Positions 1 through 9,544 of a stretch of 9,544 nucleotides of DNA are shown here, in pieces; the first letter of the stretch is position 1, and the number at the start of each line of letters is the position of its first letter. Under the pieces are notes generated by a model. The model saw only the letters and a list, made by a program, of their open reading frames with translations. It ran no database searches and was not told the DNA's origin. Source of the stretch: Spirochaetota bacterium (GTDB lineage Bacteria; Spirochaetota; UBA4802; UB4802); contig JAKPOE010000246.1 of the NCBI GenBank assembly GCA_029548025.1, positions 1-9,544 on the forward strand, read 5' to 3'. A program made the translations under genes and the position numbers.

Positions 1-1127
1 TCATATAAGCGTGAAAGTGAAGATACGTAACCAAACTCATTATCATACCAGAAGTTTAAGTCAACCATGGTATAGTAATTATCGCCGCGTTTGGTGGTTC
101 GGTGATGGGTAAATTCTGCATCATAGATAGTTGAATAGGTACTTCCCACGATATCCGAGCTTACAAGCTGTTTCTCTGAGTAACACATGATATCTGGATT
201 TTTTTCTGAGTACTGTTTAAATATTTTATGGATATACTGGTTATCATAATCACCAAGAAGCGAAACATCCAGAATAACTATCGAACCAGTATTAACAGGC
301 ACCCTTATGGATGAAGCCTGCGAACCTATACCCAGTTTCTGCACTTCGGGTATAACCTCCAGAACTGCCTTTGCAGCACCGGTGCTTGTGGGTATCATGT
401 TGTTCAAAATGCTGCGCCGTTTACGGGTGTCTTTATCGCCATCTTTAGGTAATACATCAAGCGTTGACTGCGAATTGGTTACGGCATGCACCGTTGTTAA
501 TGCATATGAAATAAATTTATCGCCAAAATGATCAACCAGCGCTTTGATAGGTGGTGCGCAACAATTGGTAGTGCATGAAGCATTGGAAATGATAACATGT
601 TTTCCAGCATCATACTTATCAAAATTAACACCGCCAACTACGGTAACCGCATCATCCGGAATCTGTTTACCTTTATCTTTTACTTTAAATGGTGCTGTAA
701 CAATCACCTTCTTAGCATGATTAAGATGACCCCGCAGAGAATTTTCATCATTTCGCGTTGGATCAAGCATCTTACCCGTAGTATCAAAAACAACATTCAC
801 GCCAAATGTATCCCATGGTATCTTTCCGGGCACCCTGTAGTCAGGCTCGTTTAACCAGATTAGCTTTACACCATTGAGGTAAACATGACCATCTTTTATC
901 TCAACCGCGCTCTTGCCACTGAAACCGCCAATAAACCTATTAAAAGAACCATAGGTAGAATCATATTCAAAGTACGTCGCTAAATCCTCTAATGAGGTAC
1001 CCGTTTTTCTTCCGGTTGCTATAACTATTTCTTTTTGCTGCTTCTTTGCGGCATAGAGCCATACCAGAAGCTTGCCTATGCGTCCAATTCCCATAACACC
1101 AATTGGTGCATCAGGTAATACTGCCAT
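1..1127 (-). CDS. gap: Divergent type I glyceraldehyde-3-phosphate dehydrogenase, 3' end cut by window edge
   Basis: Catalyses the reversible conversion of glyceraldehyde 3-phosphate, phosphate and NAD(P)+ to 1,3-bisphosphoglycerate in cytoplasmic glycolysis or gluconeogenesis. 375 codons are visible and the frame is still open at the edge. Seen: Rossmann glycine motif GIGRIG (about residues 13-18, usually GFGRIG), catalytic motif NASCTTN with nucleophile Cys185, TTVHAVT with the base His214, PTSTGAAKAV (246-255), IRVPV with Arg275, and WYDNEFGY (360-367). The usual NAD-selecting Asp after the second beta strand (AIND in E. coli) is replaced by ATGRKTG (37-43), which suggests NADP preference. 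It is longer than the usual 330-340 residues because of inserts around residues 61-72, 95-105 and 147-160. The start at 1127 is chosen because GGAGG (1139-1135) lies 7 bases upstream; an in-frame ATG at 1133 abuts that site. The family call is secure; the cofactor is inferred. Confidence 0.95.
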   Translation of the reverse strand, partial: MAVLPDAPIGVMGIGRIGKLLVWLYAAKKQQKEIVIATGRKTGTSLEDLATYFEYDSTYGSFNRFIGGFSGKSAVEIKDGHVYLNGVKLIWLNEPDYRVPGKIPWDTFGVNVVFDTTGKMLDPTRNDENSLRGHLNHAKKVIVTAPFKVKDKGKQIPDDAVTVVGGVNFDKYDAGKHVIISNASCTTNCCAPPIKALVDHFGDKFISYALTTVHAVTNSQSTLDVLPKDGDKDTRKRRSILNNMIPTSTGAAKAVLEVIPEVQKLGIGSQASSIRVPVNTGSIVILDVSLLGDYDNQYIHKIFKQYSEKNPDIMCYSEKQLVSSDIVGSTYSTIYDAEFTHHRTTKRGDNYYTMVDLNFWYDNEFGYVSSLSRLY

Positions 1128-1159
1128 AATCATCCTCCATATATAGTAAAATAATTATA
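1128..1159 (-). promoter_or_regulatory. Candidate -10 box and ribosome binding site of the GAPDH gene
   Basis: On the minus strand a perfect TATAAT occupies 1159-1154, about 26 bases before the ATG, and GGAGG at 1139-1135 is a strong Shine-Dalgarno site. No good -35 hexamer lies 16-18 bases upstream of the -10: the region there is GC-rich (GGACGG). The promoter may therefore depend on an activator, or the TATAAT may be a chance match in AT-rich DNA. The ribosome binding site is secure; the promoter is tentative. Confidence 0.4.
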
Positions 1160-1305: not shown

Positions 1306-4300
1306 TTATCGATGTACCTTCCGTGTGGGATGCGCACCCAGATAAACATGCCCGGTGTTGCCATCAATGGTTATGACATCACCCTCTCGAATGACTATCT
1401 TACCTCCCTGTTCCCTGTTTATAACAGCTATGTTCTCACTTTCAGCAATCTTCATTATGGAAAAATCACTAACGCCCGATTTTTCCAGACGGCGCATCTG
1501 CAGTACAGCATGTGATGTCATGCCTCCCACCGAGGTTAAAATCCCATCCGATTTTTGTAAACCAATGACATCCTCAGGATTTGTTTCCGGACGTATCAAA
1601 ATAATCTTATCTTTGGGATATTGCATCCGTATAGCTTCTATGCGATTGATATCAAATACAGCCCTGCCACTTACAGCACCTCCTGAAGCAGCCAATCCCT
1701 GTCCCAGCAGGTACTGCGATAGCTGCTGTGGAGTTTCTACAAGCTCTTCTATATCAAACATATGTTTTGCCATACCCCGTATCTGCAATATATACAATAC
1801 ATCATTTTCAAATGTAAACTCAACTTCGATATCATTGCCCCACCGCTTGCGTAACCGGCTAACAGCATCGCGTAGCGTAGCATAATGGTTGGGATATGCT
1901 TTTTCCAGCGAAGGATACATCGCAAAGCGGGCAAATTTTAATTTCTGCTGTTCGTTTATTGGAAATACCTTTGCAACACCGCTGACAATATCATGCCCCT
2001 GTGCCCTTGTTTTATATTCGCCCACTATCTGCAACTCTTCATATTCAATATATTGACTGTGCACAACACCGGTAATGGAGGTTGGCGATAGATTGCCAAA
2101 AACCATACGCTGTGCAATAACAGCAGTGCCCCAATCATCTGAAATATTAATAAATTGGCGATAGTTCCTTGCAATAGGGGAATCCCATGATTTGAAAACA
2201 GCAATAATCGCATAGAATAGCTGTTCATAAGGATCTTTGGGAGCAGAGTGCCCGGCTTTATTGATTGCATAGCGATACTTAAGGGTTAGCATTGACATCT
2301 GTTTGCCATTGAGCTTTTCTTTCAAATCAACACCAGCCTCATCCTTTGCCTGCGTCATAAGATTTTCAAAGATATGACGGTCCATCCCATATGCTGATAT
2401 TGCAAAATCGTGTATCAATCGACGGTAACAATCCCACGCAAACCATTCATCAAACTGTGTAAAATATTGTACAATTTCCTCGGTCATGCCAACATTGGTA
2501 ATAGTATCCATTACGCCCGGCATGGAAAAAACAGCACCGCTTCGCACAGACAACAGTATGGGATTTTGGGGATTGGCAAATCTAAATCCAGTAAATGCAT
2601 CAATATATTTTTTTAACATATAGATGAGCTTTCGTTTAAACCTCGGATTGTTTATATTGCCATCTTTTATCCTTTTATACAACTCTGAAGATATAACAAT
2701 CCCTTCGGGGACATTAATCCCATCCATATTTGCAGCAATAATCAGCCCCTGTGCCTTGGCACCCACCTCCCACAAAGGAACATAGAGCTCTGTTTCATCA
2801 TAAGTACCTTCATATTTTCCAATCACATGAATAAGCTTTCCCTTCTTCATACGGGCATCAATTGCACCAAGTACAACAATATTTCCCATATAGGAATACA
2901 CTGAATTGAGATGGTCCCTTAATTTTAATAAAAGGTTATCCATTAACTGCAATAATGGTGACTGCATAACCCTGTGACGCAAAAACCTGTCAACAATCAC
3001 CTCGACATTAGCAGGTTGATCGGGAGGTATGAAATCAGGGATTATATTATCCATTCCTATATTTTTAATAGCAATACGGCTGACTGACTTAAAGGTATCA
3101 TTAAACCTGTCAGAGATCTCACCATGAATAACAAGAAGGCTATTTACTATGTCACGAAACTGCGTTACGGTAATATTAGGTGCATCAAGCAAGCTGGTAA
3201 CCGAACGCATCTCGTGATTGGCAAGTCCATCAATTTCAAACGATTGGATAAAAAGTTCTACCACTCGCTTGATTGCATCATAGTCAATTTTTTGATGAGG
3301 ATAGATGCTTATATTTTCAATAATCTTTTCAAAAAGGAGTACCCGCACAATATTGCAGTGGAAAAATACCTTTAATGTATCAAACTTTTTTTCTTTATAT
3401 GATCCATACATTGATGGTATGCCAAAAGCAATATGTCGTTTAAACTCAATTGTATCCACAGGTTCAAACACATCCTGAGACAACAGGATGTCCCATTTTA
3501 ATCTGTTTTGCAGATCAAGAATTGCCTGAAGCGATTGAAACAAATCATTGCCTTCAAGTTTCTGGAAAAAGTCATCAGGTGGGTTGAAAAGATTTTCAGA
3601 TGCATATTGATGCAGTTTTTCAATAGCTCTAATATCAGAGAAATTATACTTATCAAAAATCATGCGGTACACATGCAGAAATGTAATAAATTTCTCTATA
3701 TTCACGGTAGAAACATCTAACCTTTGTACATCCTCAAACAGTTTTCTGAAATCATCATCCGGAATTTCATAGAGAAAGCGCCATATCTGTTTGCGCGATG
3801 TATCAATATCAAACATTCCGGCAATATGGTGCAACATCTTGGTCATTTCAGCAGGAAATTGTTTATCAAAATATTCTACTATACAATCAAGAGCATCCTT
3901 TTTTTCATTTTCATCCATCCCATCAAAGGTATGGTGAGCAATAGCATCCATAAAACGTTTTTTGCCAACCTTGTAGAAAAAATCCCAGAATTTTTCGTTT
4001 ACATATTCGGGAAAATAATGGCGTGTTTCCATGTAAATACGCCGTGCAATTGATTCATTATCAAGGTTGATAAGCCTGAATGTTCTGTCTAAATTGTTAT
4101 ATACTTCTAACGGCACCATACCTTTGAGTAATTCCTTGTCACCGGTCAACCAGAAGTCCATGACTCGCTGGAGTAATGCAACCGTCCGGCTGCTTGACTC
4201 AACATGCACCTGCTTGCGCACAAAATGGATGAGATCGTTCATCTGGTGATTGGTATCAACACGTTCGGTAAAGGCACGTATATTGCCGGTAGCGCCGATG

Positions 4301-5703
4301 TCATGATAAAATGCCGGGAAGACTGCAGCCAGTGATATGATAAGGTAAAAAACATCTTTATAGTTGCTGTTCAGCAACCGTGATATATCACGCTGGAATA
4401 CATCAGTGTCTTTTAAAAAAACACCCCCCAGTGTAAGGTTGGCAATAAGGCTTGCAGCAAGGCGTTTCATGTACACAGGATTAAGTTCAATAAGTTCAAG
4501 CCATGTGCGGATATTGGCAAGATGACTGGCATTCACCATAACCGACCAGTCTGAAGCAATACCTGTAAATTGTGGAAAGCAAAATCGCGCATGAACAAGT
4601 ATATCAACAAAAAGGTCAATGATGGGGCGGTTATTGATTTCCACAACAGTTTTACCGATAGTATAGATTGTTGCAAATGCAGCATTGTAATTACCACCTC
4701 GTTCAATCTCGGATATAAGCACCGGCACCACCATCTGTACAACCTGTTTTAGCAAATCAAAACGCTGCTGCTGTGCAAGCACACCACACAGTGAAGCTAC
4801 ACTGCGCGATATATAAAGCTGGAGATTGGTATCGTTACCCTGCTGCGATTTTTTTACCATAAACGATAGTAAAGAAAGCAGCACGCTGTCATCCTGAATT
4901 ATATTGCGCACAATGCATTCACGGGCTGCAATGCATATTTTTTCCCATGCAGTTTCATTATGATGAAAATCAATAACATTGATTAATTGCTGTAACAGTT
5001 TTTCATAATCCGTGATGGTAGTTCGGCTATCCAGTGCTATCTGTAATTTTTTTTCATACGCTTCTTTTGTGACTGTTTGAACATACTGGCGTAGTGTTGC
5101 TATTGATTCACCATCACTATTCCACAGGTTTCGCAATGAGTCCATATATTCTTCTTCAACCACAATACTTCGTTCTACATACAGTTTAAATTGATTGATG
5201 ATGATATCTGTGCACAGTTCAAATAGCTGTGCATCCAGTTTCTTTCGCTGAAGCGATAGCTCCATGAGTTGTATAATACGTTGATTAACATCCTCCAGAT
5301 AAAATCCTTCCTGAGTATCCGAAAGTAAAATCCTGCAAAAATCAATTGCTTCTTTATCAAAGATGGCAGTAACATTGTCCAGGGAACTATCGCCCGCAAT
5401 TTCTTTTTTTAGTAAAAACAGATAGCGATCCAGAAATGTATCAGCAGCTCTGATTGTTGAACCACGCTTGCGTACCGTTGCTTCTTTAAGATAATGGAAT
5501 ATAACGGGCAGCACCCTATCACTGTGAGGGACAATGTCATACATGTAATCATACAGATAAGCTCTGATCTCGGTAACCATGTATTTCCAGTCAATGTTGG
5601 GATGAGTCATCTCGGCAACCAGGTTTTTAGCACGGCTCAGTGCACCAATTTTATGCTCAACCGGCAACAGTATGTTATTCACATCGTAGATTTCATATTC
5701 CAT
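1306..5703 (-). CDS. Giant PPDK-like protein: unassigned helical N-terminus, ATP-grasp and phosphohistidine domains, no PEP barrel
   Basis: 1465 residues. Residues 1 to about 940 are rich in predicted helix (many Leu/Ile/Phe-heavy amphipathic stretches), have no signal peptide or clear membrane segment, and match no family I recognise. From about 971 the protein follows the PPDK nucleotide-binding domain: EVGAKAQGL (979-987), LSVRSGAVFSMPGVMDT (1051-1067, with the ATP-site Arg), FKSWDSP (1170-1176), DDWGTAVIAQRMVFGN (1189-1204), AQGHDIVSG (1234-1242), EFTFEN (1295-1300) and LQIR (1306-1309). The swivelling phosphohistidine domain follows, with ILIRPETNPEDV (1368-1379), GGMTSHA (1393-1399, catalytic His1398) and GDVITIDGNTGHVYLG (1441-1456). 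The protein ends nine residues later, so the roughly 340-residue PEP/pyruvate barrel of PPDK is absent. Expected chemistry is ATP-driven autophosphorylation of His1398; the phosphoryl acceptor is unknown. The start has AGAGG (5716-5712) 8 bases upstream. It should not be annotated as pyruvate phosphate dikinase itself. Confidence 0.9.
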   Translation of the reverse strand: MEYEIYDVNNILLPVEHKIGALSRAKNLVAEMTHPNIDWKYMVTEIRAYLYDYMYDIVPHSDRVLPVIFHYLKEATVRKRGSTIRAADTFLDRYLFLLKKEIAGDSSLDNVTAIFDKEAIDFCRILLSDTQEGFYLEDVNQRIIQLMELSLQRKKLDAQLFELCTDIIINQFKLYVERSIVVEEEYMDSLRNLWNSDGESIATLRQYVQTVTKEAYEKKLQIALDSRTTITDYEKLLQQLINVIDFHHNETAWEKICIAARECIVRNIIQDDSVLLSLLSFMVKKSQQGNDTNLQLYISRSVASLCGVLAQQQRFDLLKQVVQMVVPVLISEIERGGNYNAAFATIYTIGKTVVEINNRPIIDLFVDILVHARFCFPQFTGIASDWSVMVNASHLANIRTWLELIELNPVYMKRLAASLIANLTLGGVFLKDTDVFQRDISRLLNSNYKDVFYLIISLAAVFPAFYHDIGATGNIRAFTERVDTNHQMNDLIHFVRKQVHVESSSRTVALLQRVMDFWLTGDKELLKGMVPLEVYNNLDRTFRLINLDNESIARRIYMETRHYFPEYVNEKFWDFFYKVGKKRFMDAIAHHTFDGMDENEKKDALDCIVEYFDKQFPAEMTKMLHHIAGMFDIDTSRKQIWRFLYEIPDDDFRKLFEDVQRLDVSTVNIEKFITFLHVYRMIFDKYNFSDIRAIEKLHQYASENLFNPPDDFFQKLEGNDLFQSLQAILDLQNRLKWDILLSQDVFEPVDTIEFKRHIAFGIPSMYGSYKEKKFDTLKVFFHCNIVRVLLFEKIIENISIYPHQKIDYDAIKRVVELFIQSFEIDGLANHEMRSVTSLLDAPNITVTQFRDIVNSLLVIHGEISDRFNDTFKSVSRIAIKNIGMDNIIPDFIPPDQPANVEVIVDRFLRHRVMQSPLLQLMDNLLLKLRDHLNSVYSYMGNIVVLGAIDARMKKGKLIHVIGKYEGTYDETELYVPLWEVGAKAQGLIIAANMDGINVPEGIVISSELYKRIKDGNINNPRFKRKLIYMLKKYIDAFTGFRFANPQNPILLSVRSGAVFSMPGVMDTITNVGMTEEIVQYFTQFDEWFAWDCYRRLIHDFAISAYGMDRHIFENLMTQAKDEAGVDLKEKLNGKQMSMLTLKYRYAINKAGHSAPKDPYEQLFYAIIAVFKSWDSPIARNYRQFINISDDWGTAVIAQRMVFGNLSPTSITGVVHSQYIEYEELQIVGEYKTRAQGHDIVSGVAKVFPINEQQKLKFARFAMYPSLEKAYPNHYATLRDAVSRLRKRWGNDIEVEFTFENDVLYILQIRGMAKHMFDIEELVETPQQLSQYLLGQGLAASGGAVSGRAVFDINRIEAIRMQYPKDKIILIRPETNPEDVIGLQKSDGILTSVGGMTSHAVLQMRRLEKSGVSDFSIMKIAESENIAVINREQGGKIVIREGDVITIDGNTGHVYLGAHPTRKVHR

Positions 5704-5985: not shown

Positions 5986-8595
5986 TTACACTGCTTGCTT
6001 CTCAGCTTTACTGCGTTTTACATTAAATTGGATTTCATTATTCTTGTAATCCACAATAACGGTATCATCATCCATTATCTCGCCGCCTAAAATTTTTACG
6101 GAAAGTGGATTGAGCAGATATCTCTGTAAAGCCCTCTTCAACGGACGTGCACCAAACTGTGGATCAAACCCAACGTTAACAAGGTAATCTAACGCCTTTT
6201 GTGTAAGCTCAAGTTTTATGCCGCGATCTTTTAAACGTTTGCCCACCTCATTGAGCTGTATCATGATAATTTTATTGATATGCTCTCGGGTCAACGGGTT
6301 AAAGACAATCACATCATCAATGCGGTTTAAAAACTCAGGCTTAAAATGCATCTTCAGCTCCTGCTGCACCCCTTTTACCCGTTCCTCATAGGGTATGGCA
6401 GGGTCAGAAATATATGCTGTCCCAATGTTGGATGTCATGATTATAAGGGTATTCTTAAAGTCTACTGTGCGCCCTTTTGCATCGGTAAGCCTGCCTTCAT
6501 CCAGTATTTGTAAAAATACATTAAACACATCCGGATGTGCCTTTTCAATCTCATCAAACAGGACAACCGAATAGGGACGCCTGCGGATGGCTTCGGTAAG
6601 CTGTCCGCCCTCTTCGTACCCAACATAGCCAGGTGGTGCACCAATAAGGCGTGCTACCGAATGTTTTTCCATATACTCGGACATATCAATACGCACTATC
6701 GCCTTTTCATCATTGAACAAAAACTCTGCCACAGCTTTTGCCGTTTCGGTTTTTCCTACACCTGTTGGTCCTAAAAATATGAACGAACCAATGGGTCTGT
6801 TGGGATCCTGCAATCCAGAACGAGAACGGCGTACTGCATCAGCAATAGTTTGTATTGCCTGCTCCTGACCAACCACCCTCTTTTCAATAATCTCCTCCAT
6901 TTTTAAAAGCTTTTCTTTTTCACCTTCAAGCATTTTACTTACGGGTATGCCGGTCCATCTGGAAACAACAGCAGCTATCTCCTGCTCGGTAACCTCTTCT
7001 TTTAAAAGCTTTCGATCTTTCTGAATATCATTCAACTTATCATTGAGCGCTTTTAACTTCTTTTCAAGCTCAATAATCTTTCCATATCGTATCTCAGCAA
7101 CTAAATTCAGATTGCCTTCACGCTCGGCTTTTTGCTCCTGTATTCGTAAATTTTCAATCTCTTCTTTAATCTTCCGTATTTCTACTATGATCTTCTTTTC
7201 ATTTTGCCACTGTACCGAAAGTTCCTTCTTCTTTTCATTTAAATTTGCTAAATCCTCTTCAATCTTCGCAAGACGCTCTAATGATGCTTTGTCCTTTTCC
7301 TTTTTTACTGCTTCACGCTCAATGGTAAGCTGGCGTATCTTACGTTCAATCTCATCAAGCTCTATTGGCATGGAATCAATCTCCATCTTTATGAGCGAAG
7401 CAGCTTCATCAATTAAATCAACTGCCTTATCAGGCAAAAATCTATCAGTGATATAACGGTTAGACAGCACCGCTGCAGCAACCACCGCTGAGTCCGAAAT
7501 ACGCACGCCATGATGTACCTCATAGCGTTCTTTTAAACCACGCAAAATGGCGATAGTATCCTCAACTGAGGGCTCACTGGTAAATACAGGCTGGAAGCGT
7601 CGTTCCAGCGCTTTGTCTTTTTCAATATACTTTTGATATTCATTCAGGGTTGTTGCACCAATGCAGCGCAGCTCTCCCCGTGCCAATGCAGGTTTAAGCA
7701 TATTCGATGCATCAACCGAACCTTCTGCAGCGCCTGCACCAACCAGCACATGCAACTCATCAATAAACAAAATAACATCACCTTCGGATTGTTCAACCTC
7801 CTCAATAACAGCCTTCAAGCGTTCCTCAAACTCGCCACGGTATTTAGCACCGGCAATCAATGCGCCCATATCAAGCGCAACAATGCGTTTATTCTTCAAG
7901 CTTTCGGGAACATCACCAGCAACAATACGCTGTGCCAAGCCTTCAACAATGGCAGTTTTGCCAACACCCGGCTCGCCAATAAGGACAGGATTGTTTTTTG
8001 TTCTGCGTGACAGTACCTGCATAACACGACGAATCTCCTCATCTCTGCCAACAACAGGATCAAGTTTGTTCTGCCGTGCCAATTTGGTTAAATCCCTGCC
8101 AAACCGTTCCAGCGCATTATATTTATCCTCAGCCGACTCATCGGTAACACGTTTATTGCCTCTGATATCGGCAAGCACACGCAGGATATTCTCTTTGGTA
8201 AAACCATGTGCATTCAATATGTCACGGGCTTTAGTTTTTCCTGTTGTGGCAATCCCCAGTATAAGATGCTCGGTGCTTAAATATTCATCCTTTAATGTAA
8301 CTGCTTCATTCCATGCAGTATTCAGCACATCACGTAAAACTGATGACATAACACCGCCGCCAGGACCGCCGTACTGCTTTGGCATTGCCGAAAGTGCCAT
8401 CTCGGTTTCACGCTTAATTTCATCTACCGAAGCACCCAGCCGTTGAGCTATAGGCGTAAATATGCCATCATCCTGATTGACAAGTGCATACAATACATGC
8501 TCGGGGGTTATTTCAGGGTGGTTATATTGTGTTGCCACATTCTGCGCTTCATACAGTGCATTCTGTGTCTTTAATGTCAGTTTATCCATACGCAT
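5986..8595 (-). CDS. clpB: ATP-dependent protein disaggregase ClpB (Hsp100)
   Basis: Cytoplasmic hexameric AAA+ chaperone that, with DnaK/DnaJ/GrpE, threads aggregated proteins through its pore. The 869 residues (E. coli 857) show all the parts: N-terminal Clp repeat domain (about 3-145), first AAA+ module with Walker A GEPGVGKT (207-214), pore loop KYRGEF (251-256), Walker B LFIDE (276-280) and ERRF arginines (331-334), a charged coiled-coil middle domain (about 405-535), and a second AAA+ module with Walker A GPTGVGKT (609-616), pore loop GYVGY (656-660), Walker B LFDE (679-682), NRID (757-760) and sensor 2 GARPLKR (815-821). The full-length middle domain separates it from ClpA and ClpC. 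The start at 8595 gives [11 protein letters not shown], close to E. coli MRLDRLT. A six-codon extension to ATG 8613 is open, but that ATG overlaps the GGAGGT ribosome binding site. It has its own promoter and terminator and is probably heat-induced. Confidence 0.97.
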
Positions 8596-8605
8596 AGGTA
8601 AATCT

Positions 8606-8611
8606 ACCTCC
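8606..8611 (-). promoter_or_regulatory. clpB ribosome binding site that decides the start
   Basis: GGAGGT (8611-8606 on the minus strand) lies 10 bases before ATG 8595. Its first G is the last base of the alternative ATG at 8613, so that upstream ATG would have no site of its own in front of it: the sequence before it is AT-only (TATATTA). The ATG at 8589 would be 16 bases away, which is too far. Confidence 0.75.
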
Positions 8612-8683
8612 ATTAATATAAAATAATAAAATTACAATACCATTAATACATGAATACAATAACCATAAAATAATAAAACAGGA

Positions 8684-8763: not shown

Positions 8764-9544
8764 TTATTTATTTCGGATATCTTCTTCTCCCGACAATGGT
8801 ATAATCTGCTTTACCGTAACAGGAATAAACCATAGGGGAGGATTAAAAAATCCTTTCCATTGCGGGCGCTGAATAATATCCTTCACCGTTAATTTTAGCA
8901 TTGATGGAATATGACTACCCGGCAGCCCAACTACTGCAACCGGTAAAAGTCCCACCCCATAGGGTGCACCTAAATCCTGTTTTGGAGAAATGCCAACATA
9001 CATGCGCATGTGTTGATTCTCTGCTAAATAGTTGAGGATTCTTTTATCCGCAACCGGCAGCCATAGCGAGTATCCGCCATCAGCAATAAGAACACGGGCA
9101 ATTACCTGACCAGTCAGTTTATTGTTATGTGCAATAGTCTGGCATATATCAACGATATTATTTTCCAACTCTTCTGCATTGAGTATTTTTATTGCTGTTT
9201 GCTTTGGATACAGCGCAGGCAGTTCATACGGCAGAGCATTCTGTACACCAAACACCTCGGCAACAAAAGGTTTTGCTGCCTTCGTCTTTGTAGCGGTCAC
9301 ACCATCCTTCCATCGGTCACCTGCATCACCATGGAATATCCTTCCAGCTTCGCAAAACACATCAACTGGATTTCCATAAACATCATACATCCTCTGCCTG
9401 TATGTCACATCATAGTAACTATCGCCAATAAACGATAACGCTGTGCGCTCAGTATGGGTTAAACCTCCTGTGCCAATCACATACAGCGTTATGCCCTTTT
9501 TCTTGATAAGGTAACGAAGTGAACGTGCATTGCTGTAATCGCAC
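8764..9544 (-). CDS. Unrecognised protein, C-terminal 259 residues, 5' end outside window
   Basis: The frame is open from the window edge to TAA at 8766-8764, so the start lies beyond 9544; a GTG at 9480 is internal, with the frame continuing upstream through 21 further codons. I do not recognise the family. The visible part begins with alternating helix and strand, including GITLYVIGTGG (17-27) and FIGDSYYDV (38-46). Next comes an Asp/Gly-rich stretch, FHGDAGDRWKDG (70-81). A later hydrophobic segment, GVGLLPVAVVGLPG, is too short and Pro/Gly-rich for a membrane helix. The tail is rich in Pro and Trp (QRPQWKGFFNPPLWFIP) before a charged end. GDSYYD recalls HAD or GDSL hydrolase motifs, but the other motifs of those families are not seen. 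Codon use and composition match the neighbours. No terminator follows; the clpB promoter begins at once. Confidence 0.85.
   Translation of the reverse strand, partial: CDYSNARSLRYLIKKKGITLYVIGTGGLTHTERTALSFIGDSYYDVTYRQRMYDVYGNPVDVFCEAGRIFHGDAGDRWKDGVTATKTKAAKPFVAEVFGVQNALPYELPALYPKQTAIKILNAEELENNIVDICQTIAHNNKLTGQVIARVLIADGGYSLWLPVADKRILNYLAENQHMRMYVGISPKQDLGAPYGVGLLPVAVVGLPGSHIPSMLKLTVKDIIQRPQWKGFFNPPLWFIPVTVKQIIPLSGEEDIRNK

What the first reader, a model, noticed from the sequence alone, without database searches (positions are those of the whole stretch)
1306..5703. PPDK-type phosphohistidine enzyme without its PEP barrel, fused to a roughly 940-residue unknown helical region
The last third has the PPDK ATP-grasp and swivelling His domains with key motifs intact (SVRSGA, DDWGTAV, AQGHDIVSG, GGMTSHA), but the reading frame ends just after the His domain. 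PPDK, PEP synthase and rifampin phosphotransferase all pair ATP-grasp and His domains with a third module that supplies the acceptor. Here the only candidate for that role is the very large N-terminal region. This fits a phosphotransferase with an unknown substrate, perhaps a protein, polysaccharide or small molecule, or a regulatory kinase that passes phosphate to a separate protein.
Basis: partly seen in the sequence, partly recalled or inferred. Interest (0 to 1): 0.75.

Follow-up and report, generated by a model that had tools for sequence, protein, structure and literature searches.

The report
Dikinase with an unknown acceptor domain
An uncultured spirochaete encodes an enzyme that looks able to load phosphate from ATP onto a histidine but lacks the usual module that receives it; it carries a large unknown helical domain instead and is encoded beside a variant of the sugar enzyme GAPDH, so it may perform a phosphorylation not yet described.

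Summary
Confirmed: the 1465-residue ORF ends in a PPDK-type ATP-grasp and phosphohistidine domain with intact motifs and has no PEP barrel. It is not half of a split PPDK: 10 of 13 relatives' genomes hold a complete PPDK, and only 1 of 36 barrel matches lies in a short frame. The N-terminal 975 residues are not a plain scaffold: in 52 aligned proteins from two families (about 30% identical), segments 345-531 and 679-780 are as conserved as the catalytic domains and rich in invariant charged residues. AlphaFold models are confident and found no clear PDB match. New: the next gene is a divergent GAPDH paralogue in 16 of 16 readable relative loci. Of 296 Spirochaetota genomes, 24 hold both, adjacent and co-directional; two hold only the dikinase (contig ends), one only the GAPDH. 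Desulfobacterota hold sister families of both; linkage there is untested. Best explanation: a phosphohistidine dikinase with a new N-terminal acceptor module for an anionic small molecule, working with an NADP(H)-type GAPDH-like enzyme. Activity and substrate are unproven.

The parts
1306..5703 (-). CDS of the fused dikinase, 1465 aa
4684..5703 (-). N-terminal helical arm, residues 1-340, poorly conserved (8 of 340 positions at >=90%)
4111..4671 (-). Conserved core segment a, residues 345-531 (55 of 187 positions at >=90%, 35 invariant): W386 N391 H394 N397 R399, D432 D434, R476, H493 R496 K497 Q498 H500 E502
3670..4110 (-). Variable helical stretch, residues 532-678 (0 of 147 positions at >=90%)
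3364..3669 (-). Conserved core segment b, residues 679-780 (27 of 102 at >=90%, 17 invariant), with KRHIAFGIPSMYGSYKEKKFD at 755-775
2914..3363 (-). Helical segment c, residues 781-930 (17 of 150 at >=90%; D851, D922 invariant)
1768..2769 (-). PPDK-type ATP-grasp domain, about residues 979-1312
1333..1710 (-). Phosphohistidine (mobile) domain, about residues 1332-1457
1510..1512 (-). Codon of His1398, the predicted phosphorylated histidine (GGMTSHA)
3..1133 (-). GAPDH-like gene that follows the dikinase; 377 aa seen, the end lies outside the window

Best explanation
A phosphohistidine dikinase with a new N-terminal acceptor module. Proposed cycle: the C-terminal PPDK-type ATP-grasp domain charges His1398 from ATP (as in PPDK, probably leaving AMP); the small His domain then swings back to the N-terminal helical module and passes the phosphoryl group to a substrate bound there, or the reaction runs in reverse. 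The invariant Arg/Lys/His residues of the N-terminal core suggest a small anionic, probably phosphorylated substrate. The GAPDH paralogue encoded next to it, predicted to prefer NADP(H), would use the product or supply the substrate; the simplest scheme is acid -> acyl phosphate (dikinase) -> aldehyde (GAPDH-like), by analogy with aspartokinase and aspartate-semialdehyde dehydrogenase (recalled). Shown: domains, motifs, conservation, gene pairing in Spirochaetota. Inferred: catalysis, swivelling towards the N-terminus, substrate class, cofactor, direction.
For: ATP-grasp and His domain positions K983, R1054, E1295, Q1307, R1309 and H1398 are invariant in 52 aligned proteins; by the alignments they fall on the PPDK positions recalled as K22, R92, E323, Q335, R337 and H455. 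N-terminal segments 345-531 and 679-780 hold 55 of 187 and 27 of 102 positions at >=90%, against 72 of 334 for the ATP-grasp and 37 of 126 for the His domain, 8 of 340 for residues 1-340 and 0 of 147 for 532-678. The GAPDH paralogue follows directly in 16 of 16 readable loci, and in 24 of 24 genomes that hold both genes they are adjacent and co-directional. All 13 genomes tested also hold a canonical GAPDH, so the partner is an extra, specialised copy. Desulfobacterota hold a sister branch of each gene.
Against: No activity, substrate or structure is known. No model coordinates were available, so it is not shown that the invariant N-terminal residues form one pocket or lie within reach of His1398. 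G165 has the GAPDH variant without a detected dikinase. Gaps between the genes reach 185 bp, so one transcript is not proven. At least 13 of the 26 genomes with the N-terminal region are the same genomes that one search had found. Linkage in Desulfobacterota could not be tested.
Confidence: 0.55

Rival explanations
1. Protein-directed or regulatory phosphotransferase: the helical N-terminus docks a protein, perhaps the partner GAPDH, and the phosphohistidine domain modifies it.
For: The N-terminal part looks like HEAT-type helical repeats over residues 12-471, a common protein-binding form; a protein partner is encoded next door in 16 of 16 readable loci.
Against: The conserved residues sit in two segments of the core and not in the repeat arm, and the charged invariant set resembles a small-ligand site; the GAPDH paralogue keeps its own catalytic residues.
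Confidence: 0.15
2. Phosphorylation of a polysaccharide or another substrate unrelated to GAPDH; the neighbouring GAPDH is merely co-regulated.
For: Glucan, water dikinase shows that the same chemistry can act on glucans (recalled). Variable gaps of -3 to 185 bp and the lone GAPDH in G165 leave room for loose linkage.
Against: No carbohydrate-binding Pfam domain in 32 members. The GAPDH stays while no other neighbour family recurs in more than 4 of 18 loci, window included.
Confidence: 0.1
3. A pseudo-enzyme or regulator that no longer transfers phosphate.
For: A PPS-like transcription regulator, PspR, is reported in Haloferax (PMC10948481, search listing with the start of the abstract).
Against: The catalytic positions of the ATP-grasp and His domains are invariant across two distant families.
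Confidence: 0.06
4. Half of a split PPDK whose PEP barrel is encoded elsewhere.
For: The ATP-grasp and His domains are PPDK-like.
Against: 10 of 13 relatives' genomes hold a frame of 909-1019 aa with both PPDK_N and PEP-utilizers_C matches. Of 36 PEP-utilizers_C matches, 35 lie in frames of 580-1019 aa; the other is a 277-aa frame in G004 matching profile positions 144-291. A tree separates the fused proteins from the PPDKs of the same genomes, with moderate support (90/78).
Confidence: 0.02

Closest known systems
Pyruvate, phosphate dikinase (TIGR01828; e.g. 1kbl, 1vbg, 2x0s)
   Same: ATP-grasp domain followed by phosphohistidine domain with the same motifs.
   Different: No PEP/pyruvate barrel; about 975 extra residues in front; 332 bits against the cut-off of 843.
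Rifampin phosphotransferase and related small-molecule dikinases (PMC4844700, abstract and passages read)
   Same: The two phosphotransfer domains combined with an unrelated acceptor domain that had no known structural homologue, according to that paper.
   Different: There the acceptor domain lies between ATP-grasp and His domain; here only about 19 residues lie between them and the candidate acceptor is N-terminal. NF041857 gives 12.2 bits against 999.
Two-component dikinases HpeHI, CreHI and phenylphosphate synthase (PMC12167813, passages read)
   Same: Reuse of ATP-grasp and His domains for small molecules.
   Different: They are two proteins acting on phenolic substrates; this is one chain, with a GAPDH-type neighbour.
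Glucan, water dikinase of plants (recalled)
   Same: A large N-terminal substrate region in front of phosphotransfer domains.
   Different: Its His domain precedes the ATP-binding domain (recalled), the reverse of the order here; no carbohydrate-binding Pfam hit here.
Type I GAPDH (TIGR01534), for the partner gene
   Same: Both GAPDH Pfam domains above cut-off; the catalytic Cys and His and the columns that I recall as phosphate-site Thr and Arg are invariant with canonical enzymes.
   Different: GR motif at the end of strand 2, insertions, and a clade of its own against 14 canonical GAPDHs.

Membership tests
PPDK | PPDK-type ATP-grasp domain with its catalytic residues | tested here: met
   TIGR01828 aligns residues 981-1310; K983, R1054, E1295, Q1307, R1309 invariant in 52 proteins
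PPDK | Phosphohistidine domain with GGMTSHA | tested here: met
   Pfam PEP-utilizers 47.4 bits; H1398 invariant in 52 proteins
PPDK | C-terminal PEP/pyruvate barrel | tested here: not met
   The frame ends at residue 1465, 14 residues after the mobile-domain match; no PEP-utilizers_C hit in the protein
PPDK | Score above the equivalog cut-off of TIGR01828 | tested here: not met
   332.2 against 843.45 bits
PEP synthase | Score above the equivalog cut-off of TIGR01418 | tested here: not met
   28.8 against 739.75 bits
Rifampin phosphotransferase | Order ATP-grasp, acceptor domain, His domain; score above NF041857 | tested here: not met
   12.2 against 999 bits; about 19 residues between the two domains
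Small-molecule dikinases (works like) | ATP-grasp and His domains with intact catalytic positions plus a separate conserved candidate acceptor region | tested here: met
Small-molecule dikinases (works like) | ATP-dependent phosphorylation of a small molecule through phosphohistidine | not testable with these tools
   needs an enzyme assay
Known helical folds in the PDB (core residues 345-955) | Clear structural match over most of the core | tested here: inconclusive
GAPDH (partner gene) | Both GAPDH Pfam domains and the catalytic Cys and His | tested here: met
   98.4 and 49 bits over cut-off; C187 and H216 of the L001 copy invariant in 13 aligned proteins
GAPDH (partner gene) | Score above TIGR01534 (type I GAPDH) | tested here: inconclusive
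   296.6 against 367.2 bits, but the window copy is cut off at its end
GAPDH (partner gene) | Asp at the end of strand 2 that selects NAD (recalled) | tested here: not met
   GR in 16 of 16 Spirochaetota copies and in 6 of 6 group-2 copies; the canonical G001 copy has INDLTD. Of three canonical rows, P0215 and P0235 have the Asp and P0217 does not

The most novel reading that the evidence does not exclude
The two genes form a module in which an ATP-to-AMP dikinase with a new, all-helical acceptor fold activates a phosphorylated acid (possibly 3-phosphoglycerate) to an acyl phosphate for an NADPH-linked GAPDH paralogue: carboxylate reduction driven by phosphohistidine chemistry, present in two bacterial phyla.
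Probability: 0.2. Interest if true: 0.85.

Novelty: new variant of a known kind. Interest (0 to 1): 0.6.

Why it matters
If right, it adds a phosphohistidine dikinase family with an unusual domain order and an acceptor module without a clear PDB match. The recurrent GAPDH partner turns 'unknown substrate' into a short list that can be tested with two purified proteins. It would also correct the annotation of many proteins whose sources call them pyruvate, phosphate dikinase.

Tried and rejected
Split PPDK: not supported. Stand-in for a missing phosphoglycerate kinase: not supported, PGK was found in 11 of 13 genomes (the misses G001 and G003 may be assembly gaps). Pfam APG12 (PF04110) in the core: matched in 10 of 32 members at E <= 1; of six proteins looked at singly it was over the cut-off in P0058 only, below it in P0078 and P0034, absent in three. 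The region is predicted helical, so I take it as a local resemblance. Fold searches: no match at E <= 0.001 in the PDB for either model or among viral predictions for the core. The VIA rows are mainly HEAT-like and other helical stretches; no PPDK or RPH chain is among the rows shown, which excludes nothing.

Gene context in Desulfobacterota: no locus could be fetched (a viral-contig scan with P0078 found none; the 15 of 135 plasmid records shown matched only the ATP-grasp/His part). By eye I compared longest-contig lengths of the 56 group-2 dikinases listed with the group-2 GAPDHs listed and saw none in common; both lists are capped, so this says little either way. A first tree of the catalytic part held only two PPDKs because of a strand mistake and is not used; one search replaced it.

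Papers: in the listings (titles and starts of abstracts) I saw none that describes this architecture or gene pair; one search showed 15 of 50 papers and one search showed 25 of 29, and the library lacks most subscription journals. PMC4001038 (passages): DVU0246 is a PPDK_N/mobile-domain gene of 2235 bp, so shorter than this family. PMC4046663 (passages): lists two PPDK and four pyruvate, water dikinase loci of Desulfotignum without domain detail. PMC8100219: listing only.
Full report
What is there. The window shows four genes on the minus strand: part of an unnamed ORF (8764-9543), clpB (5986-8613), the 1465-aa ORF of the finding (1306-5703) and a GAPDH-like gene cut off by the window end (3-1133). 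The closest relative, 98% identical at the protein level, is in a Spirochaetia assembly, UBA2205. The C-terminal third carries a PPDK-type ATP-grasp domain and a phosphohistidine domain whose catalytic positions are invariant in 52 aligned proteins. The protein stops 14 residues after the mobile-domain match, so the PEP/pyruvate barrel is absent.

Not a split PPDK. In 13 relatives' genomes, 10 have a frame of 909-1019 aa that holds both a PPDK_N and a PEP-utilizers_C match. Of 36 PEP-utilizers_C matches, 35 lie in frames of 580-1019 aa, and one is a 277-aa frame in G004. In a tree of the ATP-grasp/His part, 19 fused proteins form one side of a branch with moderate support (90/78), next to 8 PPDKs from relatives' genomes.

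The N-terminal region. In 32 members scanned singly, apart from the two phosphotransfer domains only APG12 matched more than two members at E <= 1 (10 of 32), and I take it as a local resemblance. Two families share the architecture among the best 120 of 754 hits: one with full-length members of 1451-1504 aa (P0001-P0056 and P0058, plus fragments), and one mostly of about 1384-1427 aa (P0065-P0120) at about 30% identity, covering up to 99% of the query. Source names, where given, include Desulfobacterales, Desulfobacula, Desulfatirhabdiaceae and Thermodesulfatator for the second. Across 52 sequences, positions conserved at >=90% number 55 of 187 in residues 345-531 and 27 of 102 in 679-780, against 72 of 334 in the ATP-grasp domain, 37 of 126 in the His domain, 8 of 340 in residues 1-340 and 0 of 147 in 532-678. 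The strongly conserved set is rich in charged and polar residues: W386 N391 H394 N397 R399; D432 D434; R476; D483; H493 R496 K497 Q498 H500 E502; K685 Y686; K755 R756 H757; S764; Y769 E771 K773 D775; D851; D922. I read this as a substrate site rather than a repeat scaffold.

The partner gene. In 16 of 16 loci whose contig runs past the end of the gene (L013 ends inside it), and in the window, a divergent GAPDH follows on the same strand. Fifteen loci were seen; L014, hidden there by a longer overlapping ORF, was found. Gaps run from -3 to 185 bp in the 16 pairs measured. Other neighbour families recur in at most 4 of 18 loci, window included; clpB and the ORF before it recur in four. In a draw of 296 Spirochaetota genomes, 26 hold the N-terminal region (E <= 1e-3), 25 the GAPDH variant (E <= 1e-75) and 24 both; in all 24 the two lie on the same contig and strand, with the GAPDH starting 1.6-1.8 kb after the N-terminal match, as the rest of the gene requires. 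The hypergeometric value is about 6e-32, but it ignores shared descent, and at least 13 of the 26 are genomes that one search had already found. Exceptions: in G211 and G214 the contig ends within the dikinase match or gene; in G165 a 3.2-kb contig has the GAPDH without a dikinase in the 0.67 kb before it.

What the partner looks like. All 13 genomes searched also hold a canonical GAPDH, so the partner is an extra paralogue. It keeps the catalytic Cys and His and the columns that I recall as phosphate-site Thr and Arg. It has GR in 16 of 16 copies where the canonical GAPDH of G001 has INDLTD. From general knowledge of Rossmann folds this suggests NADP(H); one of three canonical rows (P0217) also lacks the Asp. 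A sister group of the same GAPDH type occurs in Desulfobacterota (P0206-P0213, P0241 onward; names given for a few), and the two groups together are split from 14 canonical GAPDHs with 100/100 support. So both genes have a branch in the same two groups; whether they are linked in Desulfobacterota could not be tested.

Mechanism. Shown: an apparently intact ATP-grasp/phosphohistidine half, no barrel, an N-terminal core conserved like a catalytic domain, and a recurrent GAPDH-type partner. Inferred: the His domain shuttles phosphate between the ATP-grasp domain and the N-terminal core; the substrate is small and anionic; it is shared with the GAPDH paralogue. The simplest chemistry that links a phosphotransferase to a GAPDH-type enzyme is making or using an acyl phosphate. 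I put 0.55 on the general reading and 0.2 on the specific acyl-phosphate scheme.

What is known. The RPH paper says that such enzymes belong to a large unexplored group and that its acceptor domain had no structural homologue (PMC4844700, abstract and passages). HpeHI, CreHI and phenylphosphate synthase show the two phosphotransfer domains reused with other acceptors (PMC12167813, passages). This family differs from these by an N-terminal, nearly all-helical acceptor candidate and a GAPDH neighbour. It fails defining tests of PPDK, PEP synthase and RPH, so I file it as a new variant of the phosphohistidine-dikinase kind.

Noticed in passing
L053-L058 (G005:C280, G011:C48, G008:C6, G007:C112, G009:C16, G006:C3): A second PPDK-like protein of about 864-904 aa, with a PEP barrel, occurs in 12 of 13 genomes. 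In the six read, no SVRSG-type motif was found in the ATP-grasp part and the His motif reads GGFSSH. It lies next to PGK and convergent with it in 5 of the 12, so it may be a PPDK with a changed ATP site.
   Followed up: partly
L051 (G198:C40:6500-14500): The dikinase of this genome lies in two frames, residues 1-423 and 427-1460 of the query, about 170 bases apart: a split gene, an insertion or an assembly fault.
   Followed up: no
L049 (G165:C311, 3219 bases): GAPDH variant without a dikinase in the 0.67 kb before it; the next gene downstream looks like a cation transporter by eye.
   Followed up: no
P0058 residues 452-497: Pfam APG12 (ubiquitin-like Atg12) match over the cut-off (27.7 against 22.8 bits) on the IGATG...HFIRKQ segment of the conserved core; 10 of 32 members match at E <= 1.
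   Followed up: partly
window 8764-9543: ORF cut off by the window end, with hits below the cut-off to Pfam Sulfatase and NCBIfam LIC10012, followed by clpB; both recur only in L001-L003.
   Followed up: no
P0204 (378 aa): A GAPDH variant 54% identical to the L001 copy that branches first within the Spirochaetota-type group; its organism and neighbours are unknown.
   Followed up: no
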